Part shown: in pieces, positions 2,699 through 53,930 of the stretch | How the letters are laid out: every line of letters begins with the position of its first letter | Position numbering within the stretch: position 1 is the first letter of the stretch | Assembly (NCBI RefSeq): GCF_041821045.1 | Contig: NZ_JBGUAW010000001.1 | Location: forward strand, 124,001 to 188,000 | Length of the DNA: 64,000 nt | DNA from: Thiohalorhabdus sp. Cl-TMA | Lineage (GTDB): Bacteria > Pseudomonadota > Gammaproteobacteria > Thiohalorhabdales > Thiohalorhabdaceae | Direction of reading: 5' to 3' | Program-made: the position numbers and the translations under genes | The notes under the pieces: model-generated | Told to the model about the DNA's origin: nothing | Seen by the model: only the letters and a program-made list of their open reading frames with translations | The model's database searches: none

Positions 2699-4379
2699 GC
2701 TCTCGCCCGCCTGGACGCTGATCCTGGGCGCCTGCCTCATTCCCTTCGTCCGGGGCTGGGTGCGTAGCGTCTGGATCCTGGCGCTGCCGATGATCGGCAT
2801 GCTCCAGCTGTGGTACCTGCCCACCGGGGAATGGGGGCACCTGACCTTCCTCGGCCAGGACCTGGTCACCATGCGCGTGGACCGCTGGAGCCTGCTGTTC
2901 GGCTGGGTGTTCATGATAGCGGCGCTGCTGTCCTCTGTTTATGCGCTCCATGGACGCGGATGGCTGGTGCCGCTGGCCGGGCTGACCTACGCGGGGAGCG
3001 CGGTAGGCGCGGTCTTCGCGGGCGACCTGCTGACGCTCTTCGTGTACTGGGAGCTCACGGCCGTAACGTCGGTGTTCCTGGTCTGGGCGCGGGGCGATGA
3101 CCAGTCCTTCCGGGCCGGCATGCGCTACCTGTTCGTGCAGCTTGCCTCGGGTATGCTGTTGCTTTTCGGGGCTCTGCAGCATCTCACCGAGACTGGCTCC
3201 CTGCGTTTCGAGCACCTGGGTCTGGACACCCCGGGCGGTCTGCTGATCTTTCTCGCCTTCGGAATCAAGTGCGCCTTCCCGCTGCTGCACAATTGGCTGC
3301 AGGACGCCTATCCGGAAGCCACCGAGAGCGGCTCGGTCTTCCTGTCCGCATTCACCACCAAGCTGGCGGTCTACGCCCTGGCCCGCGGATTTGCCGGAAC
3401 CGAGGCCCTGATCTGGATCGGGGCCACCATGACGGCGTTCCCCATCTTCTACGCGGTGATCGAGAACGACCTCCGCCGGGTGCTGGCCTACAGCCTCAAC
3501 AACCAGCTCGGCTTCATGGTAGTGGGGGTGGGCATCGGCACGGAGCTGGCGCTGAACGGCACCGCGGCCCACGCGTTCACCCACATCCTCTACAAGGCGC
3601 TGCTGTTCATGTCCATGGGGGCCGTGCTGTACCGGGTGGGCACGGTGAAGGGCAGCGATCTGGGCGGGCTGTACAAGTCCATGCCCTGGACCACGACCTT
3701 CTGTATCGTCGGCGCGGCCTCCATCTCCGCCTTCCCGCTTTTCAGCGGCTTCGTCAGCAAGTCCATGATCCTTTCGGCGGCCGCTCACGAAGGCCATCTC
3801 ATTACCTGGCTGGTGCTGCTGTTCGCTTCCGCGGGCGTATTCCACCACTCGGGCATCAAGATCCCCTATTTCGCCTTCTTCGCGCATGACTCGGGCAAAC
3901 GCTGCAAGGAGGCGCCGGCCAACATGCTGGTGGCCATGGCCTTGGCCGCGGCGCTGTGCATCGGCATCGGCGTGTATCCGGCGCCGCTCTACGCGATGCT
4001 GCCGTTCCCGGTGGATTACGCGCCGTATACGGCCGGGCACGTGCTGACACAGATGCAGCTCCTGGTCTTCTCGGCGCTCGCCTTCTCGGTACTGATGCGC
4101 TCCGGGGTCTACCCGCCGGAGCTGCGGTCGGTGAACCTGGACAGTGACTGGATCTATCGCCGGCTCGGCCCGGTCCTGGGCCGGCGGGCTTTCTCCCTCT
4201 GGGACGGGGTCCAGGGCGCCCTGACGCGGACAATGCTGGGCGGCTTCGATACCTCCTTCCGCTGGCTGCAGCGCCATCACGGGGTGGCGAGCCCCCTGTC
4301 CCGGGCATGGCCAACGGGCAGCATGGTCCTCTGGGTCGCCATCCTCCTGACCGTGTACCTGGTCGCCTATTACGTCTGA
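2685..4379 (+). CDS. MnhD/NuoL-like proton-conducting antiporter subunit (third of three)
   Basis: A 564-residue membrane protein with about fourteen hydrophobic helices and a long hydrophilic C-terminal stretch (about residues 475-545) ahead of a final helix. Family signatures are CAFPLLHNWLQDAYPEATES, RRVLAYSLNNQLGFMVVGVG, THILYKALLFMSMGAV and SAFPLFSGFVSKSM. The ATG at 2685 follows CGGAGGAC and lies inside the 3' end of the small membrane gene. It is the longest and most divergent of the three. The C-terminal extension could be the lateral arm seen in larger NuoL-type subunits, but it is short. It ends the antiporter operon. Confidence 0.88.
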   Translation: MTVIELSPAWTLILGACLIPFVRGWVRSVWILALPMIGMLQLWYLPTGEWGHLTFLGQDLVTMRVDRWSLLFGWVFMIAALLSSVYALHGRGWLVPLAGLTYAGSAVGAVFAGDLLTLFVYWELTAVTSVFLVWARGDDQSFRAGMRYLFVQLASGMLLLFGALQHLTETGSLRFEHLGLDTPGGLLIFLAFGIKCAFPLLHNWLQDAYPEATESGSVFLSAFTTKLAVYALARGFAGTEALIWIGATMTAFPIFYAVIENDLRRVLAYSLNNQLGFMVVGVGIGTELALNGTAAHAFTHILYKALLFMSMGAVLYRVGTVKGSDLGGLYKSMPWTTTFCIVGAASISAFPLFSGFVSKSMILSAAAHEGHLITWLVLLFASAGVFHHSGIKIPYFAFFAHDSGKRCKEAPANMLVAMALAAALCIGIGVYPAPLYAMLPFPVDYAPYTAGHVLTQMQLLVFSALAFSVLMRSGVYPPELRSVNLDSDWIYRRLGPVLGRRAFSLWDGVQGALTRTMLGGFDTSFRWLQRHHGVASPLSRAWPTGSMVLWVAILLTVYLVAYYV

Positions 4380-4432
4380 GGGCGGTTCCGTTTGAGGTAA
4401 GGGAATAGCCGTGTAAATATTAAGGGAATTTC

Positions 4433-4454
4433 CGGCCCCGGGCGGTGGGGGCCG
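4433..4454 (+). other. GC-rich hairpin in the hemN leader
   Basis: A perfect 7-bp inverted repeat (CGGCCCC and GGGGCCG) with an 8-nt loop lies 25 nt before hemN. There is no run of T after it, so it is not a standard intrinsic terminator. It may end antiporter transcripts weakly or sit in the hemN leader. No FNR/ANR-type site is visible in the 100-nt gap. Confidence 0.35.
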
Positions 4455-4479
4455 ACGGAGCTTCCCAGGAGACACGGCC

Positions 4480-5874
4480 ATGACCGACCAGCAGGTGGAA
4501 TTCGCCCTCGATCTGATCGAGAAATACGACAAGAGCGGCCCCCGCTACACGTCCTATCCCACCGCCCCGCAGTTCCACGAGGAGCTCGGCCCGGAGGCCT
4601 ACGCCCGGGTCGCGCGGGCCACCAATGCCGAGCACCCCAAGCGCCCGCTGTCACTGTATTTCCATATCCCCTTCTGCGACACGCTCTGCTTCTACTGCGC
4701 CTGTAACAAGATCGCCACCAAGGACCGCTCCAAGGCGGCTACCTACCTGGACTACTTGTTCCGGGAGATCGAGCTGCAGGGGGCCCTGTTCGACGATGAT
4801 CGTCCGGTGGACCAGCTCCACTGGGGCGGCGGCACCCCGACCTTCCTCAGCTCCGAGCAGATGCGCGCCCTAATGCGCAAGACCGGGGAGCATTTCCGGC
4901 TGCGCGACGACGATACCGGGGAGTACGGCATCGAGGTGGATCCGCGCGCGGCGGACGCGGAAACCATCGCCGCCCTGCGGGAGGTGGGCTTCAACCGGCT
5001 GTCGGTGGGCGTCCAGGACTTCGATCCGGAGGTCCAGAAGGCGGTGAACCGCATCCAGCCCGCCGAGCAGACCTTCGCGGTTCTGGACGCCGCCCGCCGG
5101 GAGAACTTCCATTCCGTCTCCCTCGATCTGATGTACGGGCTGCCCTTCCAGTCGCGGGAGACCTTCGCCTGGACCCTGGAGCGGGTCCTGGAGAAGCGGC
5201 CGGACCGGCTGGCTGTGTTCAATTACGCCCATCTGCCCGACATGTTCCCGCCGCAGCGGCGCATCCGCGAGGAGGACCTGCCGGCGCCGGGAGAGAAGCT
5301 TGCCATCCTCCAGCAAACCATAGAGCGGCTTACCGCCGCGGGCTACGTCTACATCGGCATGGATCATTTCGCCCTGCCGGACGATGAGCTGGCACGGTCC
5401 CAGCGGCAAGGGCAGCTGCACCGCAATTTCCAGGGCTACTCCACCCATGCTTACTGCGACCTGGTGGCAATGGGAGTCACGGCAATCGGCAGCGTGGGGG
5501 CCACCTACAGCCAGAACGTTCGGACCCTGGAGCCGTACTACGAGGCGCTGGAGGCGGGCAGGCTGCCCGTGTTCCGGGGCTACGAGCTCACCGGGGAGGA
5601 CCGCCTCCGCCGGGCGGTGATCACCCGTCTCATGTGCGATTTCGCCCTGGATTTCGACCGGGTGGAGGCGGAGTGGGGGTTAGATTTTGCGGTCTATTTC
5701 GCCGATGAGCTGGCGGACCTGGAGGGCATGGCGGAGGACGGCCTTATCGAACTGAGCGAGCGGGGGCTTTCGGTCACCCCGCGTGGCCGGCTGCTCATCC
5801 GCAATATCGCCATGGTGTTCGATGCCTACCTGCGCGCCAAGGAGGGAGCGCAGCGCTATTCCAAGGTCATCTGA
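4480..5874 (+). CDS. hemN: oxygen-independent coproporphyrinogen III oxidase
   Basis: A 464-residue radical-SAM enzyme that oxidatively decarboxylates coproporphyrinogen III to protoporphyrinogen IX without oxygen. The [4Fe-4S] motif CxxxCxxC is in FCDTLCFYCAC (near residue 66), preceded by the HemN signature YTSYPTAPQF at the N terminus. GGGTPTFLSSEQM is the SAM-binding glycine motif, and SVGVQDFDPEVQKAVNRIQ is typical of true HemN. Length matches the E. coli enzyme (about 457 residues). Good Shine-Dalgarno CCAGGAGA before the ATG. It supplies heme for the b- and a-type cytochrome oxidases encoded further on. Confidence 0.96.
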   Translation: MTDQQVEFALDLIEKYDKSGPRYTSYPTAPQFHEELGPEAYARVARATNAEHPKRPLSLYFHIPFCDTLCFYCACNKIATKDRSKAATYLDYLFREIELQGALFDDDRPVDQLHWGGGTPTFLSSEQMRALMRKTGEHFRLRDDDTGEYGIEVDPRAADAETIAALREVGFNRLSVGVQDFDPEVQKAVNRIQPAEQTFAVLDAARRENFHSVSLDLMYGLPFQSRETFAWTLERVLEKRPDRLAVFNYAHLPDMFPPQRRIREEDLPAPGEKLAILQQTIERLTAAGYVYIGMDHFALPDDELARSQRQGQLHRNFQGYSTHAYCDLVAMGVTAIGSVGATYSQNVRTLEPYYEALEAGRLPVFRGYELTGEDRLRRAVITRLMCDFALDFDRVEAEWGLDFAVYFADELADLEGMAEDGLIELSERGLSVTPRGRLLIRNIAMVFDAYLRAKEGAQRYSKVI

Positions 5875-6099
5875 TCGTCGGATCCAGGAAATCCCGCAAT
5901 GAGGTGCCCATTCGGCGCCGCCAAGGGATGGGCCCCTTACACGATTAGGCCCGCAGGGCGGGACAAGGCCCCCGGGATCAAAAGGCCCTGCCCGGTAGGA
6001 GCCTCCCTTCCGGTCGCCTTGCACGCTTGTGCCCGTGCCTGTGCTGGTCGCCGTAATGGAGGCACAATCCCGCGCGGTGCCGAAGAGCCTTAAGGCCCA
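5875..6099 (+). other. hairpin-rich intergenic leader or candidate small RNA
   Basis: Between hemN and the next gene lie 292 nt without a convincing gene. It holds successive hairpins: GCAGGGC (5955) pairs with GCCCTGC (5985), and CCGGTAGG (5992) pairs imperfectly with CCCTTCCGG about 14 nt on. The terminator at 6100-6130 follows. The layout could be an independent small RNA, a structured leader of the HAD gene or a long hemN 3' UTR. I could not match it to tmRNA, 6S, SRP or RNase P RNA by eye. Confidence 0.3.
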
Positions 6100-6130
6100 G
6101 GCTCCATTGGAGGAGCCGGGGTTTTGTTTT
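6100..6130 (+). terminator. intrinsic terminator
   Basis: GGCTCC and GGAGCC form a 6-bp stem with a 6-nt loop, followed by GGGG and a T-rich tail (TTTTGTTTT). It lies 37 nt before the HAD phosphatase start. It therefore ends either hemN transcripts, a small RNA, or acts as a leader attenuator. Confidence 0.6.
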
Positions 6131-6166
6131 ACGCTTTGCGGCAGCCCGCCAGCCAATGGAACGAGT

Positions 6167-42977: not shown

Positions 42978-44213
42978 TTATCCGCCGATGGCCTGGCCCA
43001 TCTTGAAGATCGGCAGGTACATGGAGATCACCAGGCCGCCCAGCACCACGCCCAGAACCACCATGATGATGGGCTCCAATAGATCGGTAAGGCCGTCCAC
43101 CGCGGCATCCACCTCCGATTCGTAGAAATCGGCGATCTTGGCGAGCATGGTCTCAAGACTCCCGGATTCCTCGCCGATGGCAATCATCTGGGTGACCATG
43201 GGCGGAAAGACCCCGGACTCCTCCAGGGGGTCCGAAAGGCGCTGCCCCTGGCTGACCGCCTCCTGGGTGTTCTCCACGGCTTCCTGGATGACCTTGTTGC
43301 CCGCCGTCCGGCTGACGGTATCCAGGATCTCCAGCATGGGCACGCCCGCCGCGCTCAGGGTGGCGAAGGTCCGCGTCATGCGGGCCACGGAAGCCTTCAG
43401 GGCGATGTTACCGAACACCGGGAGCTTGAGAATGTACTTGTCCACCTGATAGTGGAACTTCGGTGAGCGCCTATAGGCCTCCCGAAAGGCGAAGAAAGCG
43501 GCGATGATGCCGCCGAAGATCCAGTACCAGTTGGAACGGAAGCTGCGGGACAGGTCGATGACGAACTGCGTGGGCGCCGGAAGGGAGGTGCCGAAGCCGG
43601 CGAAGATTTCCTCGAACTTGGGGATCACGAAGACCATGAGCACCGCGGTCACCAGCGCCGCCACCACGATCACCGCGATGGGATAGAACATCGCGGATTT
43701 TACCTTGGCCCGCAGGGCCTCGGTCTTCTCCAGGTAGGTGGCCATGCGGTCCAGGACGGTATCCAGGATGCCGCCCTTTTCGCCGGCGCGGATCATGTTC
43801 ACGTACAGCTCGTCGAAGACGTCGGGGTGGGCCGCCAGGGCATCTTGCAGGGGCTGGCCGCTCTCGATGTCCGCGGCCACCTGCTCGATGACCTTGCGCA
43901 TGGCCCCGTTCTCGCTGCCCCGGGCGATGAGCTTGAAGGCCTCCACCAGGGGCAATCCCGCGTCGATCATGGTGGAGAGCTGGCGCGTCATCACCACGAT
44001 GTCGTGGATCTTGATCTTCTCTTTCTTCTGAAAGAGCGGCTGAGGCTTCTTCTTGACCTTGGCGGGGATGATGCCCCGCTGCCGAAGGGCCGCAGTGGCC
44101 GCCTCTGCGGAGACCGCCTCGATCTCCCCCTTCTGCGCCGTCCCCTGGCGGTCCCTCCCCTTCCATTGGAATTCGATCTGCTTGGGCTTTTCGTCCGACT
44201 TCTTTTCGGCCAT
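42978..44213 (-). CDS. pilC: type IV pilus inner-membrane platform protein PilC
   Basis: A 411-residue protein. The N-terminal block KQIEFQWKGRDRQGTAQKGE and RQRGIIPAKVKKKPQPLF is typical of PilC/GspF. Two T2SSF domains follow, each with the pattern RQLSTMIDAGLPLVEAFKLI and RTFATLSAAGVPMLEILDTV. Helices lie near residues 175, 225 and 385. PilC anchors the assembly and retraction motors PilB/PilT, neither of which is in the window. The 26-nt gap to aroE suggests cotranscription. Confidence 0.96.
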   Translation of the reverse strand: MAEKKSDEKPKQIEFQWKGRDRQGTAQKGEIEAVSAEAATAALRQRGIIPAKVKKKPQPLFQKKEKIKIHDIVVMTRQLSTMIDAGLPLVEAFKLIARGSENGAMRKVIEQVAADIESGQPLQDALAAHPDVFDELYVNMIRAGEKGGILDTVLDRMATYLEKTEALRAKVKSAMFYPIAVIVVAALVTAVLMVFVIPKFEEIFAGFGTSLPAPTQFVIDLSRSFRSNWYWIFGGIIAAFFAFREAYRRSPKFHYQVDKYILKLPVFGNIALKASVARMTRTFATLSAAGVPMLEILDTVSRTAGNKVIQEAVENTQEAVSQGQRLSDPLEESGVFPPMVTQMIAIGEESGSLETMLAKIADFYESEVDAAVDGLTDLLEPIIMVVLGVVLGGLVISMYLPIFKMGQAIGG

Positions 44214-44239: not shown

Positions 44240-45091
44240 TCAATTCCCCAGCTGCCCCTCCAGCCACTCGATGACCGGCTCGACGCGGGGCTCCTTCCCG
44301 GTCCAGCGAGCATAGCTGATGGCCCCCTGGCGGACCAGCATGCCGAGGCCGTTGGCCACGGCAAGGCCTTGCTGCTCCGCTTCCTGGAGCAGGGGCGTGC
44401 GCGCCGGGTTGTAGATCAGGTCGTAGACTCCGGCCTCCCGGGGAAGCGCGTCAAGCGAGAGCCCGGGAAAGGTCTCCCCTTTCAGGCCCACGCTGGTGGT
44501 GTTCACCAGGAGCCGAGCCCGGGGGAGCGCGTTCTGCAACTCCTCCGAGGGAAGTGCGACCGCCCTCCCCGTCTCCGGGGCCAATTGGCCGATCAGGGCC
44601 TGCCCCGTTTCGAGGGTCCGATTGGCCACCACCACTTCGGGGACGCCGGCCACGGTGAGGGCGTGCACTACGGCCCGGGCCGCGCCGCCGGCACCGAGGA
44701 CCACCACTGGCCCTTTTCCCCAGCCGGTGTGGTCGAAGTGCGCCTCCAGGTCGGCTGCGAAGCCCGCCCCGTCGGTGTTATCCCCGATCAAGCGCTCGCC
44801 GTCGACGATCACGGTGTTCACCGCCCCCATGGCCCTGGCGGCATCGGTGTGCTCGGAAACCAGGCGAAAAGTGGATTCCTTGTGCGGAACCGTGATGTTC
44901 ACGCCCCTGATGCCCAGGCTCGGCAGGGCGTGGAGGGCGGTTTCCAGGTTTTCCGGAAGTACATGGAAGGGGACGTAAACCGAATCTTCTCCGCTTTCTT
45001 CGGCGAAGCGGGTGTGCATGGCCGGGGACAGGCTATGGGCCACGGGATCTCCGAAAACTCCCAGGACACGGGTTGAACCCCGGATACTCAT
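44240..45091 (-). CDS. aroE: shikimate dehydrogenase
   Basis: A 283-residue NADP-dependent enzyme of aromatic amino acid synthesis. Shikimate binding is in GVFGDPVAHSLSPAMHTRFA and GVNITVPHKEST with catalytic Lys. NADP binding is in VVVLGAGGAARAVVHAL and the arginine-containing VVANRTLETG. Its start overlaps the O-ligase stop (ATGA), so a housekeeping gene is translationally coupled to pilus-associated genes. Confidence 0.95.
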   Translation of the reverse strand: MSIRGSTRVLGVFGDPVAHSLSPAMHTRFAEESGEDSVYVPFHVLPENLETALHALPSLGIRGVNITVPHKESTFRLVSEHTDAARAMGAVNTVIVDGERLIGDNTDGAGFAADLEAHFDHTGWGKGPVVVLGAGGAARAVVHALTVAGVPEVVVANRTLETGQALIGQLAPETGRAVALPSEELQNALPRARLLVNTTSVGLKGETFPGLSLDALPREAGVYDLIYNPARTPLLQEAEQQGLAVANGLGMLVRQGAISYARWTGKEPRVEPVIEWLEGQLGN

Positions 45092-46644
45092 CGTAAGGTC
45101 CCTTCTTGTTGTGGTGCGGCGCAGTTCTCTTTGCTTACGGGCGAGGGCCAGGGAGGCCGGCAGAGATCACCTTGCAGCCAGAACCTGGGGTGGAAGCGCA
45201 TTTCCTGCTTGCTATAGGTCTCATGGGCTTCGGGCAAACCGGTCAAGGAAAAGCTGAATCCGGGAACGAGGGCTGTGATTCCCAGCAGACCGAAGGCTGC
45301 CAGGAAGGCACCATGGGCATCTCTACGACGAGGAACTTCGGGTTGCGGGGATGCCTTCCGCCGAGCGAAATGAACACCCAGAAGCCACCCGACTACTAGT
45401 ACGGCCATAATTTGGCTCATGGGCATGACCATGGTGCCACTGACCATGCCGTGGCCCAGGCCCGCGAACAAGGCGGCGGTGAGGGCCGGTGGCAATGCTC
45501 CTTCCCATGCCGGCAGCTGAGTCGGCACATGCCATTCCGTTCCGCTCCATTGGTGGGCCCAGGACAGCACCCCGCCCAGCACGAGTACCACCCCTGCCAG
45601 GGTGGCCGGCAGGCCCCACTCGGCGAATAGCTGCAGGAGGGCATTGTGTGGATGGGTGGCGATTTCGGGATCTAGGGCTAGCTGCATGGGGCCTACACCC
45701 AGAAAAGGGTGGGCGAGGCCGGCCTTAAGGGCCGCCGACCATAAAATAAGGCGCTGGGAATCCGCCGAACCGCTTTTGTCGATGGCCCGCTCAAAACCGG
45801 GCGTTCCACCGGGCAAATAGAACAAAAGAAAGTAGAGGGCTCCACCTAGCCCGACGAGGAGAAGGGTTGTGCCAAGCCATTGGAGGGCCTTCCCCCGGAA
45901 GAACAGGACAACGAACAGGGTGCTCAAAAGGGCCGCGATAAGGGCTCCCCGGCCGCCTGTGGCGAACAGGAGCGCCCACCAGAATCCCCCCAGGAGCGCT
46001 AACAGGGCCCGGAGGGTTCGGCTCCATTGCCCAGCCAGCAGGGTGGCTGCGGCAACCAGCGGCAGGGACCAGCTCTGGAACTGATTCAGGAAGCGGACGT
46101 TGGCGAAATGGAAAAAGGGGCTTCCCCAGAAGATAGTTACTTCGGGCACTCGAACGGTTGGGAGATACATCGCCAAAAACTTCCCGGTGTACAGCGCCAC
46201 CCCGCCCAGGGTTAGCGCCAGAAACCACGCGTCCCCTTCCTTGGCCGATTGCCACCTGGCCCCAGCCACCGCAACGACCGCCCCCACAGCCAGCGTTAGG
46301 GTCCCCCACTCGAGGAAGGCGGGCATGGGAGAAGGGCTACGGGCAGCAGAAACAAGGCCCAGGGCAAAAAACAGCCCGATGGCGGCCCGGGCCCAGACCG
46401 GGAGCCCGGTCCAGAAGGTCCCGTTAACCGAGCGCATCGATCGGGATAGCAGAGGGAGAAGGGCCAGGGTGACCAGCGAGGCCACCACCAAGAGCCGCTG
46501 ATGGTCGTAATGGCCGGGAACGAGCGATGGCATCAACAGGCCATTGGGGCCTGCAACGACGGGCAGCGCGGCCGTGGCCATCGTCAGGCGGGCCAGCCAG
46601 GGGACCCATGGGTTTGGGGTGCCGCCAGCACCTTGGTTAGGCAT
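45088..46644 (-). CDS. O-antigen ligase / pilin O-oligosaccharyltransferase-like membrane protein (Wzy_C)
   Basis: A 518-residue protein with about 12-14 membrane helices. The Wzy_C/PglL motif is in the large periplasmic loop: SADSQRLILWSAALKAGLAHP, GVGPMQLALDPEIATHPHNA and LLQLFAEWGLPATL. The HPHN with WG is the mark of O-antigen ligases and bacterial O-linked protein glycosyltransferases. The surrounding pil genes favour a pilin oligosaccharyltransferase (PglL/TfpO-like) over LPS ligase. The start at 46644 is the most likely; it overlaps the ABC ATPase by 8 nt. Confidence 0.82.
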   Translation of the reverse strand: MPNQGAGGTPNPWVPWLARLTMATAALPVVAGPNGLLMPSLVPGHYDHQRLLVVASLVTLALLPLLSRSMRSVNGTFWTGLPVWARAAIGLFFALGLVSAARSPSPMPAFLEWGTLTLAVGAVVAVAGARWQSAKEGDAWFLALTLGGVALYTGKFLAMYLPTVRVPEVTIFWGSPFFHFANVRFLNQFQSWSLPLVAAATLLAGQWSRTLRALLALLGGFWWALLFATGGRGALIAALLSTLFVVLFFRGKALQWLGTTLLLVGLGGALYFLLFYLPGGTPGFERAIDKSGSADSQRLILWSAALKAGLAHPFLGVGPMQLALDPEIATHPHNALLQLFAEWGLPATLAGVVLVLGGVLSWAHQWSGTEWHVPTQLPAWEGALPPALTAALFAGLGHGMVSGTMVMPMSQIMAVLVVGWLLGVHFARRKASPQPEVPRRRDAHGAFLAAFGLLGITALVPGFSFSLTGLPEAHETYSKQEMRFHPRFWLQGDLCRPPWPSPVSKENCAAPQQEGTLR

Positions 46645-47581
46645 TCGGTGCGGGGGCCTCGCCGGTGGCCGCGATGAAGGTGCCTTCCAGCCCGGTGCCC
46701 TTGGGCTGAATCTCCAAGAGCTCCAGCCCATCCTGCTGCAGGGTGTTCAAGGCCGCCCACAGGTCAGCGGCTGGGAGCGCCGTCCGCCACAGGCCAGCCC
46801 CCTCCTCGATTGCTTCCCAGCCGTCCGGAGCCCGGGCCCCTCGAAACCTGACCGTGTAGCCGGTCAGCTGCTCCCCAAGCAAATCGGTGGGGCGGGCCTC
46901 CCGGATCAGCCGCCCCTGGTTGAAGATCCCGACCCGATCGGCAATCCGCTCGACGTCCGAAAGGATATGAGAGCTGAACAGGATGGTCCCGCCCTCCTGA
47001 CAGAAGTCCCGGAGAAGCTCCGTGACATGGTGCCGCCATAAGGGATCCAACCCCGTCATGGGCTCATCGAGGATCAGAAAGCGCGGCCGGCCCGCCAGGG
47101 CGAACCCAATAGCGGCCCTTTGCGCCATGCCCTTCGAATACTGCTGAATGGGCTTACCGGCCACTTCGGTCAGGCCGAGCCGTTCCAGCAGTTGGTCTGC
47201 ATGGGCGCGGGCCGGCTGCCGGTGCAGCCCCCGGACCCGTCCGGCGCCCGAGAGCAATTGCCGGGCGGGAATATGGGGCATCAATGAGGGATTCTCGGGC
47301 AGGAAGCCGAGATCTTCCCGCCCTCGGGCATCCCCCGAGGGGTAGCCGTTTACCCGAATGCGGCCACGGGAGGGAAAGATCAGACCGAGGGCCAGTTTGA
47401 GGGTCGTGCTCTTCCCCGAGCCGTTATGCCCGACCAGTCCATAGACCTCCCCCCGGCGAACGGTAAGGGCCAGGTCCCGCAGCGCCTCCGTTTCCAGGCG
47501 CCGGCCCGTCCAGTTGCGGTTCCGGTATGTCTTGCCCAGATGGCGGGCCTCCAAGGGATGGGATGCTTCGTCAGCGGCCAT
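46637..47581 (-). CDS. ABC transporter ATP-binding protein (PilH-like)
   Basis: A 314-residue ATPase with all active motifs: VYGLVGHNGSGKSTTLKLAL (Walker A), DLGFLPENPSLMPHIPA (Q-loop), QYSKGMAQRAAIGFALA (signature), RFLILDEPMTGLDPLWRHH (Walker B) and ILFSSHILSDVERI (switch His). About 80 residues of C-terminal extension follow, as in ABC-2 exporters. It is encoded with an ABC-2 permease and a TPR protein. The trio recalls Myxococcus xanthus PilG/PilH/PilI, needed for pilus export; that link rests on context. Confidence 0.88.
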   Translation of the reverse strand: MAADEASHPLEARHLGKTYRNRNWTGRRLETEALRDLALTVRRGEVYGLVGHNGSGKSTTLKLALGLIFPSRGRIRVNGYPSGDARGREDLGFLPENPSLMPHIPARQLLSGAGRVRGLHRQPARAHADQLLERLGLTEVAGKPIQQYSKGMAQRAAIGFALAGRPRFLILDEPMTGLDPLWRHHVTELLRDFCQEGGTILFSSHILSDVERIADRVGIFNQGRLIREARPTDLLGEQLTGYTVRFRGARAPDGWEAIEEGAGLWRTALPAADLWAALNTLQQDGLELLEIQPKGTGLEGTFIAATGEAPAPNA

Positions 47582-49250: not shown

Positions 49251-49283
49251 GCCCCCTCCCTTCCATTGCTGGGAAGAAAACGA

Positions 49284-52200
49284 ATGAGCGAATGGTACCA
49301 TCCGGGAATGCCCTATTCGTCAAATTCGTGCTTGAACCGGGAGTCTTCTCCAGTGACGCAGCAAACCGCCGCCGAATGGGTCCAGCACGGCCTGGGTTTT
49401 CACCAGCAAGGGGATTTGGCCTCGGCCGAGGCTTGTTATCAGAGGGCCCTCGAAGCTGATCCCGCTTCTTTCAATGCCCTGCACTTCTTCGGCATGGCTA
49501 AATTCCAGCAGGGTGAACCGGAGGCGGCGGAGGAGCTTATCCGCCAGTCCATCGATTTGCGGCCGGATTCCCCCCTATTTCGCTACAACTTCGGCCAGTT
49601 CCTGGAAAACCAGAACCGCCTGGACGAGGCCCTTTGGGCCTACGAGTACGCCTTTACCCTCGACCCCACCATGGCCGCCGCCCTGAACGAACGTGGCCGG
49701 ATCCTGCAGCAGGTTGACCGGGGGGTGGAGGCCGAGGCGGCCTATAGGCAGGTCCTGGAAATCGAACCCGACATGGCCGCAGCGCATACCAATCTTGGTG
49801 TGGCCCTTTGGTCGCAAGGGGATCTCCCCGGTGCTTTAGACCAATTAACCCAAGCGTGTGCGAAAGACCCAGAGCAACTCCTCCCGCACATTCATTTGGT
49901 GGCCCTATTACTGCAAATGGGGCGGGCTGAACATGCCGTTGAGGCCGCGGAAAAGGCCCGGCAAATAGGGCTGAGCCACCCCCTTTTGGAAGTCAAGCAG
50001 GCCGAAGCCGAGAAAGAGGTGGGGTCCCAGGGAAAGGCTGCCGCCCGCCTTGAAGCCGTGCTCCAGGACGATCCCCGCAATTTTGAAGCCCTTTATACGT
50101 TGGCCCCGCTCGCTGGTCGTCTGGATGTTTCATTCCCTCAGCGGGAGGCAGAGTCCCTATTTCACGACCCGCATCTGGACCGGGATGGGCGGAGCCTATT
50201 GGGCTTTTCTTTGGGCGCCTATTCCGATTCCCGGAAAGAGCATGATGCGGCTTTCCTCTATTGGCTGGAGGCGAACCAGGCTGAGGAGGAACAAGCGGAC
50301 GCCCGGAAGACCGAACAGCTTCTTTCCCATTGGAGGGAATTACGGAAAGTATATTCGAAGGAGGTGATAGATCAGCTGGCCACGTGGGGGGACCAGGAGT
50401 CAGAGCCAATATTCGTGGTCGGCACCCCGCGTTCCGGCACCACCCTGATCGAACAGATTCTCGCGAGCCACTCCCGGGTGACCGGTGTTGGGGAAAGTGG
50501 CCTGGTGGAAGGTGTGTTACGGGATTACCTGGGGATCAACGGAAACGCGGAGGGCGGAGGAAGTGCCTCTTCCCTTTCCCCCGAGCGGTGTTCAGAGCTA
50601 GGTGCGGCATACATGCATAAGCTCCGGGAGCTTGCCCCTGGTGCAGACCGAATCGTCGAGAAGACCCCGGGCAATGCCCATAATCTTGGTTTGATCCGGG
50701 CTCTTTTCCCGAATGCTCGGGTGATCTTTGCAAGCCGGGATCCCTTGGATTCCGGTATTTCCATGTTCTCCCTTCGCTTTTCCCAATCCGTTGATTTTTC
50801 TTTTGATCTGGAAACCTTGGGGCGTTACCTGCACGGATTCCAGGAACAAATGGGTCATTGGCAGAAGGTGCTGCCCTCGAGTTTCCTTCTCAAGGTGGAG
50901 TATGAGGACCTGGTGACTGATCCTGGGCGATGGGTTCGGGAGATGCTTGCCCATTGCGGGTTGGAGTGGGAGGAAGAATGCCTCCGTTTCTTTGAAACAA
51001 AGCGTACAGTCCGAACCGCCAGCATGTCCCAGGTTCGCCAGCCCATATATAAAAGCTCGGTGAAGCGGTGGCCCCGATATGCAATCCATATCCGGCCCCT
51101 GGCGCGGGCCGCGGGCCTGGAAGAGCGATTACCCACGGAGGCTAGAGAGGAATTTAGAAGCTTTTCCCGGCTGGGTGAGCGCCAATTGGCACGTGGGCAA
51201 ATGCAGGATGCAATCCATTCTTTCCGGCGGGCCATGATGTGGGAGCCATCCCGGCGTGGCCGCATCAATGTTCTGTTGGGTCAGGCATTGGAAAGGGCTG
51301 AGCGCTTTCAAGAGGCGGAGGCCTGTTTTCGTGCCGCGGGAGAAGCCGGAATAGATCCTGAGCCCTTAGGTCTCGAAGGGGACTTAGAACTTGCGCGAGT
51401 AAGGTGCCTGCGCAAGATGGAAGGAATGCAGAAAGCGGCAGAACTCCTAGAAGCTAGACCGGTTTGCCAACAAATCCCGGAAAAACTGGAACGAGCATGG
51501 CTGGCCTTGTGGTCGGGGGAACTGCAGGGGGCCCAGTCTCAGTTCGAGGAGGTCTTGGAAGAACGGCAAGACGAGGAGGCCTGGCAGGGATGGCTCCAAG
51601 TGACCGAGCAGTTGGGCAGGACAGAAGAAGCACAGGAAATGCTGGCCTCCTCGATGGCCGAGAGGCCGGAGAGTGCCCTCCCCATCCGACTGTTTGCGGA
51701 TCTATTGCTTCAGCAGGAAAAATTTGAACAGGCGGAACCATGGGTGGCCCGTGCTCTGGAATTGGCACCACACTGCCACAAATCCCACATGATTGCCGCC
51801 GCATTCCATTACAACCGCGATCGCCTGGATGCGGCGGAACACTCCGTGAACCACGCCTTGTCCTTCTGTCCGGACCATCTTCCCGCCCACCTTATAGCCG
51901 CCCGGATCCATTTGGCCCAGGGCCAATTCCGCCTTGCCCATGCAAGTGCCCGTGAGGCCCTAGGGGTCCGAGATAATTATGAAGCCAGGACCTTATGGGG
52001 CAGAACCCTTATATTGATGGGGTCGGGGGAGGCTGGCCTAGCAGAAATTCGGAAAGCTCGGAGAGGGTATTCAAGGGAACCTAGTTTCTGGTTCCAGGAG
52101 GCTGGAGCGCTGGAGGAGCTGAACCGTCGGGCCGAGGCAATGGAACTTTTACAGACGGCTCGGGAACGGTTTCCGGAAGACGAAGACCTTCGCTTCCTCG

Positions 52201-53273
52201 AACTCCAACTCCTTCGTCAGGAAGGCGCCACCGCGGAGGCCTTGGAAGGCTTGTTGAGTTTGCCAGAGTCCTTCGAAAAACTTCCTCGCTACCATTCAGA
52301 GCTCGGCTTTTTGTATGACAGAAGGGGAGAGGTTGATCGGGCCATGGGCCATTTTCAGGAGGCCAATGACCGTTTCGCGGCCCGCTCGGCGGCGCGCCGA
52401 TTCCCCAAGGAGGTTTCGCAGTCCCGGATTGCTCGTTTGAAATCCTCTATGAACGAGAATTGGGTCCGCCACTGGCGGGTTTCCTCCCGGCCCACGGGCT
52501 GGGAAAATCCGCCGGTATTTCTGCTTGGGTTTCCTCGGTCGGGAACCACTTTGCTGGATCAGGTTCTTTCCAGTCATAGCCAAATGGCGGTAATTGAGGA
52601 GAAGCCGGCTTTCGAAGCGGTGTTGGGGGAGCTTAGGCGACAGTTTGGTGGGGACCTCAAAGGGCTGGTGGAGCTAACTGACCGGGATATAGCGGAACTG
52701 CAAGAATTCTATCGGCGGACTCTTGCCGAGAACAGTGAGAATCCTGAAAACCCAATGTTGGTGGACAAGATGCCCCTCCGCACGGTCGATGCGGGGATGG
52801 TTTACCGTTTATTCCCGGATGCTAGGTTTATCTTTGCTCGTCGGCACCCTGCAGATTGTGTTCTTAGTGCCTTCATGCAGTTATTTGTGCCTAACACGGA
52901 AATGGCGAATTTTCATTCCTTGGCAGCAGGCTCAAATTACTATCGGGCAGTGATGGAGCTCTGGGGTCAGATCCGATGGCTTTTCCCCGGTATGCAGGTC
53001 CACGAAGTCCGATACGAGGAGCTGGTGGAGGACTTTGACGGTGTCGTGGGGGCGCTTCTGGACTTCCTTGGGCTGCCCTGGGAAGAAGGAGTTCGGGCCT
53101 ACCGGGACACTGCCCGCGGCCGGGGGCGGGTAGCCACTCCGAGCCGAACTCAGGTAACCCAGCCCCTTTACCAGCATGCCCGCTACCGCTGGCGGCGCTA
53201 CAGGGAGTATTTCGGGGAGGCTTGGGAGGAGTTGTTGCCCTTCATTCGAGCGGCTGGTTACTCCGAAAACTAA
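49284..53273 (+). CDS. giant TPR-sulfotransferase-TPR-sulfotransferase protein
   Basis: About 1329 residues. Residues 25-250 are tetratricopeptide repeats (for example ALEADPASFNALHFFGMAKF). A sulfotransferase domain follows with the PAPS 5'-phosphate loop VVGTPRSGTTLIEQILASHS near residue 377 and the 3'-phosphate block FASRDPLDSGISM near 482. A second TPR array spans about 630-1010. A second sulfotransferase has LLGFPRSGTTLLDQVLSSHS near 1079 and FARRHPADCVLSA near 1184. No signal peptide is seen, so it is presumably cytoplasmic. Codon use after about 50 kb is less GC-biased than in neighbours, hinting at transfer. The start is uncertain: ATG 49284, ATG 49308 and GTG 49353 are candidates. 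Confidence 0.85.
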   Translation: MSEWYHPGMPYSSNSCLNRESSPVTQQTAAEWVQHGLGFHQQGDLASAEACYQRALEADPASFNALHFFGMAKFQQGEPEAAEELIRQSIDLRPDSPLFRYNFGQFLENQNRLDEALWAYEYAFTLDPTMAAALNERGRILQQVDRGVEAEAAYRQVLEIEPDMAAAHTNLGVALWSQGDLPGALDQLTQACAKDPEQLLPHIHLVALLLQMGRAEHAVEAAEKARQIGLSHPLLEVKQAEAEKEVGSQGKAAARLEAVLQDDPRNFEALYTLAPLAGRLDVSFPQREAESLFHDPHLDRDGRSLLGFSLGAYSDSRKEHDAAFLYWLEANQAEEEQADARKTEQLLSHWRELRKVYSKEVIDQLATWGDQESEPIFVVGTPRSGTTLIEQILASHSRVTGVGESGLVEGVLRDYLGINGNAEGGGSASSLSPERCSELGAAYMHKLRELAPGADRIVEKTPGNAHNLGLIRALFPNARVIFASRDPLDSGISMFSLRFSQSVDFSFDLETLGRYLHGFQEQMGHWQKVLPSSFLLKVEYEDLVTDPGRWVREMLAHCGLEWEEECLRFFETKRTVRTASMSQVRQPIYKSSVKRWPRYAIHIRPLARAAGLEERLPTEAREEFRSFSRLGERQLARGQMQDAIHSFRRAMMWEPSRRGRINVLLGQALERAERFQEAEACFRAAGEAGIDPEPLGLEGDLELARVRCLRKMEGMQKAAELLEARPVCQQIPEKLERAWLALWSGELQGAQSQFEEVLEERQDEEAWQGWLQVTEQLGRTEEAQEMLASSMAERPESALPIRLFADLLLQQEKFEQAEPWVARALELAPHCHKSHMIAAAFHYNRDRLDAAEHSVNHALSFCPDHLPAHLIAARIHLAQGQFRLAHASAREALGVRDNYEARTLWGRTLILMGSGEAGLAEIRKARRGYSREPSFWFQEAGALEELNRRAEAMELLQTARERFPEDEDLRFLELQLLRQEGATAEALEGLLSLPESFEKLPRYHSELGFLYDRRGEVDRAMGHFQEANDRFAARSAARRFPKEVSQSRIARLKSSMNENWVRHWRVSSRPTGWENPPVFLLGFPRSGTTLLDQVLSSHSQMAVIEEKPAFEAVLGELRRQFGGDLKGLVELTDRDIAELQEFYRRTLAENSENPENPMLVDKMPLRTVDAGMVYRLFPDARFIFARRHPADCVLSAFMQLFVPNTEMANFHSLAAGSNYYRAVMELWGQIRWLFPGMQVHEVRYEELVEDFDGVVGALLDFLGLPWEEGVRAYRDTARGRGRVATPSRTQVTQPLYQHARYRWRRYREYFGEAWEELLPFIRAAGYSEN

Positions 53274-53274
53274 A

Positions 53275-53302
53275 AAAGGGGAGACCCAAAGGTCTCCCCT
53301 TT
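53275..53302. terminator. bidirectional intrinsic terminator between sulfotransferase and pilin partner genes
   Basis: AAAGGGGAGACC and GGTCTCCCCTTT form a perfect 12-bp stem with a 4-nt loop, flanked by A and T runs. It follows the sulfotransferase stop directly, and lies 20 nt beyond the end of the pilin-partner gene on the other strand. Confidence 0.92.
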
Positions 53303-53322
53303 AAAACCTGCAGGCTGATTCT

Positions 53323-53691
53323 TCAGCCGCTGGAAACCGTATCGTAGCCCAGGTTGCTGGAGGTGCACTTTCCGGTGCCGAAATCGGCATCCTTTTGAAT
53401 GCTGCCACCACCGGTATCCCCGAAGTATGCAGCGCTCCCACCCTCATGGCAGGAGGTCACGGCGATATCGCTGGCACCGACATTAGAAGCGGTGCCGTCC
53501 TCGACTTTCAGGATTACCCCTGAGGATACCTGAATATCCACGCTCGCCCCGCTACGCAGGTTGCTAAGGGTCGAGGTGGTGATTCCAGTTTTGGAAGTGC
53601 TCCCGCTCGTGCCATCGATGGTAGTAGCGGCGTTTGCCACGAGGGGCGAACCCAGGGCCAGAGGAAGAGCGAAGGCTAGTTTCTTATTCAT
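53323..53691 (-). CDS. secreted partner of the short pilin, PilA-C/Spc-like
   Basis: A 122-residue protein with a classical signal peptide (MNKKLAFALPLALGSPLVANA) and a mature part of about 100 residues rich in Ser, Thr, Gly and beta-strand patterns. VDIQVSSG, then SDIAVTSCHEGGSAAYFG, recalls the V-x-V-x-Y then Y-x-V-x-T-x-H-x-x-G core of PilA-C-like globular pilin domains. Two cysteines could form a disulfide. It lies 44 nt downstream of the short pilin gene, in the same order as Geobacter pilA-N/pilA-C. AGGAG precedes the start. Homology to PilA-C is inferred from pattern and context. Confidence 0.7.
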   Translation of the reverse strand: MNKKLAFALPLALGSPLVANAATTIDGTSGSTSKTGITTSTLSNLRSGASVDIQVSSGVILKVEDGTASNVGASDIAVTSCHEGGSAAYFGDTGGGSIQKDADFGTGKCTSSNLGYDTVSSG

Positions 53692-53735
53692 CTTTGTTCT
53701 CCTAGTGATCGATCAGTGGCGGCGTAGGGAAAGCC

Positions 53736-53930
<195 letters not shown>

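What the first reader, a model, noticed from the sequence alone, without database searches (positions are those of the whole stretch)
49284..53273. Double TPR-sulfotransferase protein from an internal duplication
The gene carries two complete modules, each a TPR array followed by a sulfotransferase with PRSGTT and a 3'-phosphate block. Single TPR-sulfotransferases are common in marine and sulfur bacteria, but a fused tandem of about 1330 residues is unusual. The two domains are well diverged (VGTPRSGTTLIEQ against LGFPRSGTTLLDQ), so the duplication is old or the parts were joined. Two sites could act on two positions of one substrate.
Basis: partly seen in the sequence, partly recalled or inferred. 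Interest (0 to 1): 0.65.

Follow-up and report, generated by a model that had tools for sequence, protein, structure and literature searches.

The report
Fused double sulfotransferase beside pilin genes
A bacterial gene next to the type IV pilus genes encodes two different, apparently intact sulfate-transferring enzymes joined end to end, which may add sulfate to the pilus protein or its sugars; such fusions are rare but exist elsewhere, and the parts are of a known kind.

Summary
One open frame (49284-53273, 1329 aa) encodes TPR–sulfotransferase–TPR–sulfotransferase. Both sulfotransferase domains pass the Pfam cut-off and keep the PAPS-binding and catalytic residues.

The title's "internal duplication" does not hold. 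The halves belong to two deep clades of the TPR-sulfotransferase family, separated by a 100/100-supported branch. A sister relationship is rejected (AU p = 6.6e-8). Single proteins end where the second module begins, so this is an end-to-end fusion of two different genes. Tandem pairs, including clade A→B pairs, are common elsewhere. True fusions are rare: two others were found among about 200 family members (1225 and 1725 aa), so the architecture is not unique.

The gene lies tail-to-tail with a split type IV pilin (short PilA-N plus secreted PilA-C), inside the pilus locus with an ABC transporter and a TfpM-like O-ligase. A clade-B sulfotransferase end occupies the same slot in a second species of the genus; the third lacks it. 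The genome's other TPR-sulfotransferase sits between fliC and flgL.

Best reading: a cytosolic bifunctional enzyme that sulfates pilin or its O-glycan precursor. The substrate is inferred, not shown. Ordinary enzyme family, unusual fusion, suggestive location.

The parts
49284..53273 (+). Double TPR-sulfotransferase gene, 1329 aa, no signal peptide seen
49368..50303 (+). TPR array 1 (residues about 29-340)
   Evidence: Pfam TPR matches; model helices
50406..51119 (+). Sulfotransferase domain 1 (residues 375-612), family clade A
   Evidence: PF13469; tree
50421..50444 (+). 5'-phosphosulfate loop 1, GTPRSGTT (residues 380-387)
50733..50768 (+). 3'-phosphate block 1, SRDPLDSGISMF (residues 484-495)
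51120..51158 (+). Junction of the two modules (residues about 613-625); single TPR-sulfotransferases end at a median of 22 residues after the (R/K)W..Y motif, i.e. here
51159..52463 (+). TPR array 2 (residues about 626-1060)
52509..53207 (+). Sulfotransferase domain 2 (residues 1076-1308), family clade B
   Evidence: PF13469/PF00685; tree
52527..52550 (+). 5'-phosphosulfate loop 2, GFPRSGTT (residues 1082-1089)
52839..52874 (+). 3'-phosphate block 2, RRHPADCVLSAF (residues 1186-1197)
53275..53303 (.). Inverted repeat AAAGGGGAGACC-CAAA-GGTCTCCCCTTT between the convergent sulfotransferase and pilA-C genes, looks like a two-way terminator
   Evidence: read directly
53323..53691 (-). PilA-C-like pilin head protein, 122 aa with signal peptide
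   Evidence: no Pfam or NCBIfam match; by position and sequence character
53736..53930 (-). Short pilin PilA-N, 64 aa, GFTLIELMIVVAIIGILAAIAIPQF
   Evidence: N_methyl PF07963; TIGR02532
48447..49250 (-). ABC-2 permease (PilI-like by position); start moved to 49250 by comparison with G001
   Evidence: PF12679
47590..48450 (-). Unknown protein between the two ABC genes (PilG-like by position only)
   Evidence: no family match; homologue in L109
46637..47581 (-). ABC ATPase (PilH-like by position)
   Evidence: PF00005
45088..46731 (-). Wzy_C / TfpM-like O-antigen ligase or O-oligosaccharyltransferase
   Evidence: PF04932 59.7 bits; TfpM NF058641 E 7e-9, far below its cut-off
42978..44213 (-). PilC (inner-membrane pilus assembly protein)
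   Evidence: PF00482; NF052606 E 4e-144

Best explanation
The gene is an end-to-end fusion of two ancient, different TPR-sulfotransferases (clade A then clade B), probably from a neighbouring gene pair that lost the stop between them. It makes a cytosolic protein with two PAPS-dependent active sites, each behind a TPR superhelix. Most likely the TPR arrays hold a surface-filament substrate before export, and the two sites put sulfate on it: on the type IV pilin encoded next door (the PilA-C head) or on the lipid-linked glycan that the O-ligase of the same locus attaches to it. Architecture and intact sites are shown (about 0.95); catalysis is inferred from conservation; the pilin link is inferred from position only (about 0.42, the figure given below).
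For: Architecture and residues. Fusion of unlike halves: tree with a 100/100 branch between the clades and AU p 6.6e-8 against sisterhood. Unfused tandem pairs: 28 counted among the fetched loci (some seen twice), including an A->B pair in G609 with a 54-nt gap and one in G311 with a 245-nt gap. The G084 gene pair (4 nt apart) is the unfused counterpart of the fused proteins in G641 and G704. Pilin link: the gene sits between pilA-C and the ABC/ligase/pilC genes. A clade-B sulfotransferase end lies tail-to-tail with the split pilin in G002. The genome's only other TPR-sulfotransferase found lies between fliC and flgL. APS kinase is present. Precedents: FlmG docks flagellins through its TPRs in the cytoplasm (PMC7591256); two sulfotransferases sulfate two sugars of the Halobacterium N-glycan, which also decorates archaellins (PMC11980604, PMC11239922).
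Against: G001, same genus, has the same pilus locus without any sulfotransferase. Outside the genus, no pilin lies beside any TPR-sulfotransferase looked at. The G002 fragment is clade B but no closer to this protein than to other clade-B members, so strict orthology is not shown. The gene faces the pilin genes and is not in their operon. Low GC (58% against 60-67% for most neighbours; GC3 0.62-0.65 against about 0.9 for pilC and hslU) suggests acquired cargo that could serve something else. No sulfated bacterial pilin turned up in the papers searched.
Confidence: 0.42

Rival explanations
1. The same fused enzyme, but its substrate is unrelated to pili: an exopolysaccharide, lipid or small molecule. 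The gene is mobile cargo that landed between pilA-C and the ABC operon.
For: Low GC and GC3; absent from G001; no pilin next to other family members; the genome has a dozen further PF13469 matches; cyanobacterial sulfotransferase genes (PF00685, PF03567, PF13469) mostly sit in polysaccharide clusters (PMC8205485).
Against: No polysaccharide cluster is next to it; a clade-B sulfotransferase sits at the same place in G002; the sister gene is in the flagellin locus.
Confidence: 0.38
2. It is a protein-tyrosine sulfotransferase acting on PilA-C tyrosines, as TPST does, instead of on a glycan.
For: The solved sulfotransferases nearest to either half by sequence are TPST1 and TPST2; PilA-C of this genome has two tyrosines, each with an aspartate one to three residues downstream (AYFGD, GYDTV).
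Against: PilA-C of G002, which has the sulfotransferase neighbour, has no tyrosine in its mature part; nearness to TPST is true of both clades and does not tell the substrate.
Confidence: 0.12
3. The halves arose by duplication within one gene and then diverged.
For: Same domain order in both halves.
Against: Halves fall in different deep clades with outside relatives closer to each (44-47% against 33%); AU p 6.6e-8.
Confidence: 0.02
4. Two separate genes joined by a sequencing or assembly error.
For: Tandem separate genes are the common form; an out-of-frame TAG and a GGAGG lie at the junction (51137-51155), which could be relics.
Against: One frame reads through without a break, the first TPR of module 2 has no start codon before it, GC3 is even, and fused relatives exist elsewhere.
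Confidence: 0.05

Closest known systems
Tetratricopeptide repeat-containing sulfotransferase family protein (NCBI product name; PF13469 with N-terminal TPRs)
   Same: Each half has the standard layout, motifs and length
   Different: Two modules from two clades in one chain instead of one
Fused double TPR-sulfotransferases of G704 (L211, 1225 aa) and G641 (L210, 1725 aa)
   Same: TPR-ST-TPR-ST in one chain (G641 has a TPR and GT9-like stretch between)
   Different: Both of their halves are clade A, and they match another gene pair (G084 type); independent of the window's fusion
Protein-tyrosine sulfotransferases TPST1/TPST2
   Same: Sulfotransferase fold and PAPS residues; 3ap3 TM about 0.67 by target length for half 1, 8w5z 0.55 for half 2
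   Different: Identity about 20-24%; no TPRs, Golgi enzymes; substrate here unknown
FlmG of Caulobacter (TPR-glycosyltransferase that modifies flagellins)
   Same: TPR module plus transferase, cytosolic, modification of an exported filament subunit (PMC7591256)
   Different: Glycosyltransferase, not sulfotransferase; one module; flagellin, not pilin
Agl30/Agl31 sulfotransferases of Halobacterium salinarum
   Same: Two sulfotransferases acting on two sugars of a glycan carried by a type-IV-like filament (PMC11980604, PMC11239922)
   Different: Separate proteins, archaeal N-glycan, homology not tested here

Membership tests
TPR-containing sulfotransferase (PF13469) | Sulfotransfer_3 domain over the curated cut-off | tested here: met
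   Two stretches; 137 and 133 bits each
TPR-containing sulfotransferase (PF13469) | N-terminal TPR array before each sulfotransferase domain | tested here: met
TPR-containing sulfotransferase (PF13469) | Intact PAPS loop, 3'-phosphate block, catalytic Glu and Lys, C-terminal Ser | tested here: met
   R383/S384/T387/E404/K460/R485/S493/S580 and R1085/S1086/T1089/E1106/K1162/R1187/S1195/S1287; invariant or nearly so in alignments A1-A3
TPR-containing sulfotransferase (PF13469) | One module per polypeptide, as in nearly all members | tested here: not met
   Two modules; three such proteins among about 200 family ORFs
Internal tandem duplication | The halves are each other's closest relatives | tested here: not met
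   Tree, AU p 6.6e-8
Protein-tyrosine sulfotransferase (TPST) | Fold and PAPS-site residues of TPST | tested here: met
Protein-tyrosine sulfotransferase (TPST) | Sulfates tyrosine in acidic context | tested here: inconclusive
   Neighbour PilA-C has two Tyr here, none in G002; no biochemistry
Pilin or pilin-glycan modification enzyme | Gene linked to the pilin locus in related species | tested here: inconclusive
   Yes in G000 and G002, no in G001; not outside the genus
Pilin or pilin-glycan modification enzyme | Sulfate found on pilin | not testable with these tools
   Needs mass spectrometry

The most novel reading that the evidence does not exclude
This bacterium sulfates its surface filaments with dedicated TPR-sulfotransferases: one for flagellin (between fliC and flgL) and a fused two-site enzyme for the split type IV pilin or its O-glycan. 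It would be a bacterial counterpart of the doubly sulfated archaellin glycan of haloarchaea.
Probability: 0.28. Interest if true: 0.68.

Novelty: new variant of a known kind. Interest (0 to 1): 0.4.

Why it matters
TPR-sulfotransferases are widespread (143 of 399 genomes sampled in the phylum had a strong match), yet no function was found for them in the papers searched. A member fixed to a pilin locus, with its sister at the flagellin locus of the same genome, gives a concrete and cheap test: weigh the pilin and flagellin with and without the genes. If positive, sulfation joins glycosylation as a way bacteria tune pili, and the fused enzyme would show how two sulfations are coupled.

Tried and rejected
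(1) Rows with open_frame_aa near 1300 in the genome search looked like many fused doubles; most were tandem genes in the same frame with a stop between them. Only G641 and G704 were true fusions. (2) General pilin linkage of the family: rejected; a motif scan found none outside the genus beside the gene. (3) General flagellin linkage: weak; 2 of about 52 other loci with wide flanks (G203 between flgL and fliC, G054 within 4 kb). (4) One conserved neighbour for the family: none; frequent neighbours were TPR proteins including TPR-glycosyltransferases (GT41 in L151) and, in Sphingomonadaceae, what looks like a TonB receptor, and an Asp/Asn hydroxylase. (5) Doubles on plasmids: none. (6) Papers on TPR-sulfotransferases: none under that name. 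(7) The organism's name could not be obtained; the collection leaves its own record out.

Full report
1. The observation. The ORF 49284-53273 (+) is real and open for 1329 codons. Pfam places two Sulfotransfer_3 domains (residues 375-564 and about 1076-1269) and TPR repeats before each. A whole-genome search scores the two domains separately at 137 and 133 bits against a cut-off of 27. The P-loops, the 3'-phosphate blocks, the catalytic glutamate (E404, E1106), the lysine of the EKTP/DKMP motifs (K460, K1162) and the C-terminal serine (S580, S1287) are present in both halves. They line up with TPST1/TPST2 and are invariant or nearly so in alignments of relatives. Which residues are catalytic is taken from my knowledge of TPST2. 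AlphaFold2 gives confident models of both halves: mean pLDDT 87.3 for residues 1-629 and 85.6 for 610-1329. Foldseek matches both to TPR superhelices (OGT, SPINDLY) and to TPSTs. So both sites should be able to bind PAPS; activity itself is not shown.

2. How the two halves are related. They are 33% identical in the sulfotransferase domain, 24% in the TPR part, and have no meaningful DNA similarity. In a tree of 205 family domains their common ancestor is the midpoint root of the tree. In a careful 69-row tree a branch with 100/100 support and length 1.47 separates the clade that holds half 1 (A) from the clade that holds half 2 (B). Forcing the halves together costs 106 log-likelihood units, p-AU 6.6e-8. 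Internal duplication is therefore rejected; two different enzymes were joined.

3. How the fusion arose. Single TPR-sulfotransferases stop at a median of 22 residues after the (R/K)W..Y motif (151 proteins). In half 1 that point is about residue 621, and the first TPR of half 2 begins at about 626. The junction is thus where two complete genes would meet. Among the fetched loci 28 same-strand neighbouring pairs with gaps of at most 400 nt were counted (a few are one pair seen in two overlapping loci), some 1-6 nt apart. A->B order occurs in G609 (54-nt gap) and G311 (245-nt gap). A direct parallel exists: the adjacent, unfused genes of G084 (4 nt apart) branch with the N and C halves of the fused proteins in G641 and G704. 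The inference is loss of the stop between tandem genes. An out-of-frame TAG and a GGAGG at 51137-51155 could be relics, but this is only suggestive.

4. How rare it is. Searches of 369 class genomes and 399 phylum genomes, with inspection of about 200 family ORFs of 450 aa or more, gave three fused doubles: this one, G704 (1225 aa) and G641 (1725 aa, with a TPR and GT9-like stretch between). The two others were fetched because they looked long, so 3 in 200 is an upper figure. Many rows that looked like doubles were separate in-frame neighbours. None was found on plasmids.

5. Context. The gene is convergent with a split type IV pilin: a 64-aa PilA-N (53736-53930) and a PilA-C-like head with signal peptide (53323-53691), with an inverted repeat between the convergent genes. 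On its other side are, on the minus strand, an ABC permease, an unknown protein, an ABC ATPase, a Wzy_C/TfpM-like ligase, an aroE-like gene and pilC. The split pilin is like that of Geobacter (PMC5174107). Likeness of the ABC genes to PilGHI of Myxococcus rests on position and memory. In the same genus, G002 has a clade-B sulfotransferase end at the same tail-to-tail place on a short contig. It is not closer to this protein than to other clade-B members, so I call it a positional counterpart. G001 has the locus without the gene, with the ligase in that slot.

6. A second clue from the same genome. Its other TPR-sulfotransferase (contig C7, 673 aa, nearest to half 1) lies between fliC and flgL (gene names from sequence character and from matches). 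A 45-46% identical protein in G203, another family, lies between flgL and fliC as well. Two TPR-sulfotransferases, both beside filament genes, is hard to put down to chance, although the remark was made after the fact. Most family members elsewhere are not beside flagellin or pilin genes.

7. Mechanism. PAPS can be made (APS kinase). No signal peptide is seen, so action is probably in the cytosol, before export. FlmG shows the principle: its TPR domain binds flagellins and its transferase domain modifies them in the cytoplasm (PMC7591256). Halobacterium shows that a filament glycan can carry two sulfates placed by two sulfotransferases (PMC11980604; PMC11239922). By analogy the fused enzyme may sulfate PilA-C or the glycan that the locus's ligase attaches. 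A glycan is favoured over tyrosine because PilA-C of G002 has no tyrosine, while all three heads are rich in Ser and Thr (19-31%). Steps shown: architecture, intact sites, fusion of unlike halves, location. Steps inferred: activity, cytosolic location, substrate, cooperation of the two sites.

8. Verdict. The enzyme kind is known, the two-clade fusion is a new variant, and its place in a pilus locus makes a testable proposal about a family without an assigned role in the papers I could search.

Noticed in passing
window 53323-53930: Split type IV pilin (64-aa PilA-N plus separate PilA-C head with signal peptide), Geobacter-like, present in all three genomes of this genus; the PilA-C heads differ strongly while PilA-N is much more constant.
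   Followed up: partly
L085:3958-9139 (G000 contig C7): A second TPR-sulfotransferase (673 aa) lies between fliC and flgL; a 45% identical one in G203 (L264:8288-10390) lies between flgL and fliC too.
   Followed up: partly
L210:1680-6857 and L211:2890-6567: Two other fused double TPR-sulfotransferases; the G084 gene pair (L088:2263-3966 and 3971-6133, 4 nt apart) is their unfused counterpart.
   Followed up: yes
window 45088-46731; L109:13636-15378: The O-ligase gene moves within the pilus locus: between the ABC ATPase and aroE here, between pilA-C and the ABC permease in G001.
   Followed up: no
G000 contigs C2, C3, C4, C5, C6, C9, C24: About a dozen further PF13469 matches in this genome; one on C9 (near L276:5784) is about 2 kb from three pseudopilin-like genes (L276:2083-4062).
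   Followed up: no
L151:7153-12159; L160:8713-9645: TPR-sulfotransferases elsewhere often neighbour TPR proteins including TPR-glycosyltransferases (GT41); in Sphingomonadaceae they neighbour what looks like a TonB receptor, and an Asp/Asn beta-hydroxylase.
   Followed up: partly
window 49251-49283: Only about 33 nt separate the divergent starts of the sulfotransferase and the ABC permease, so the promoter of the permease operon may lie inside the sulfotransferase gene.
   Followed up: no
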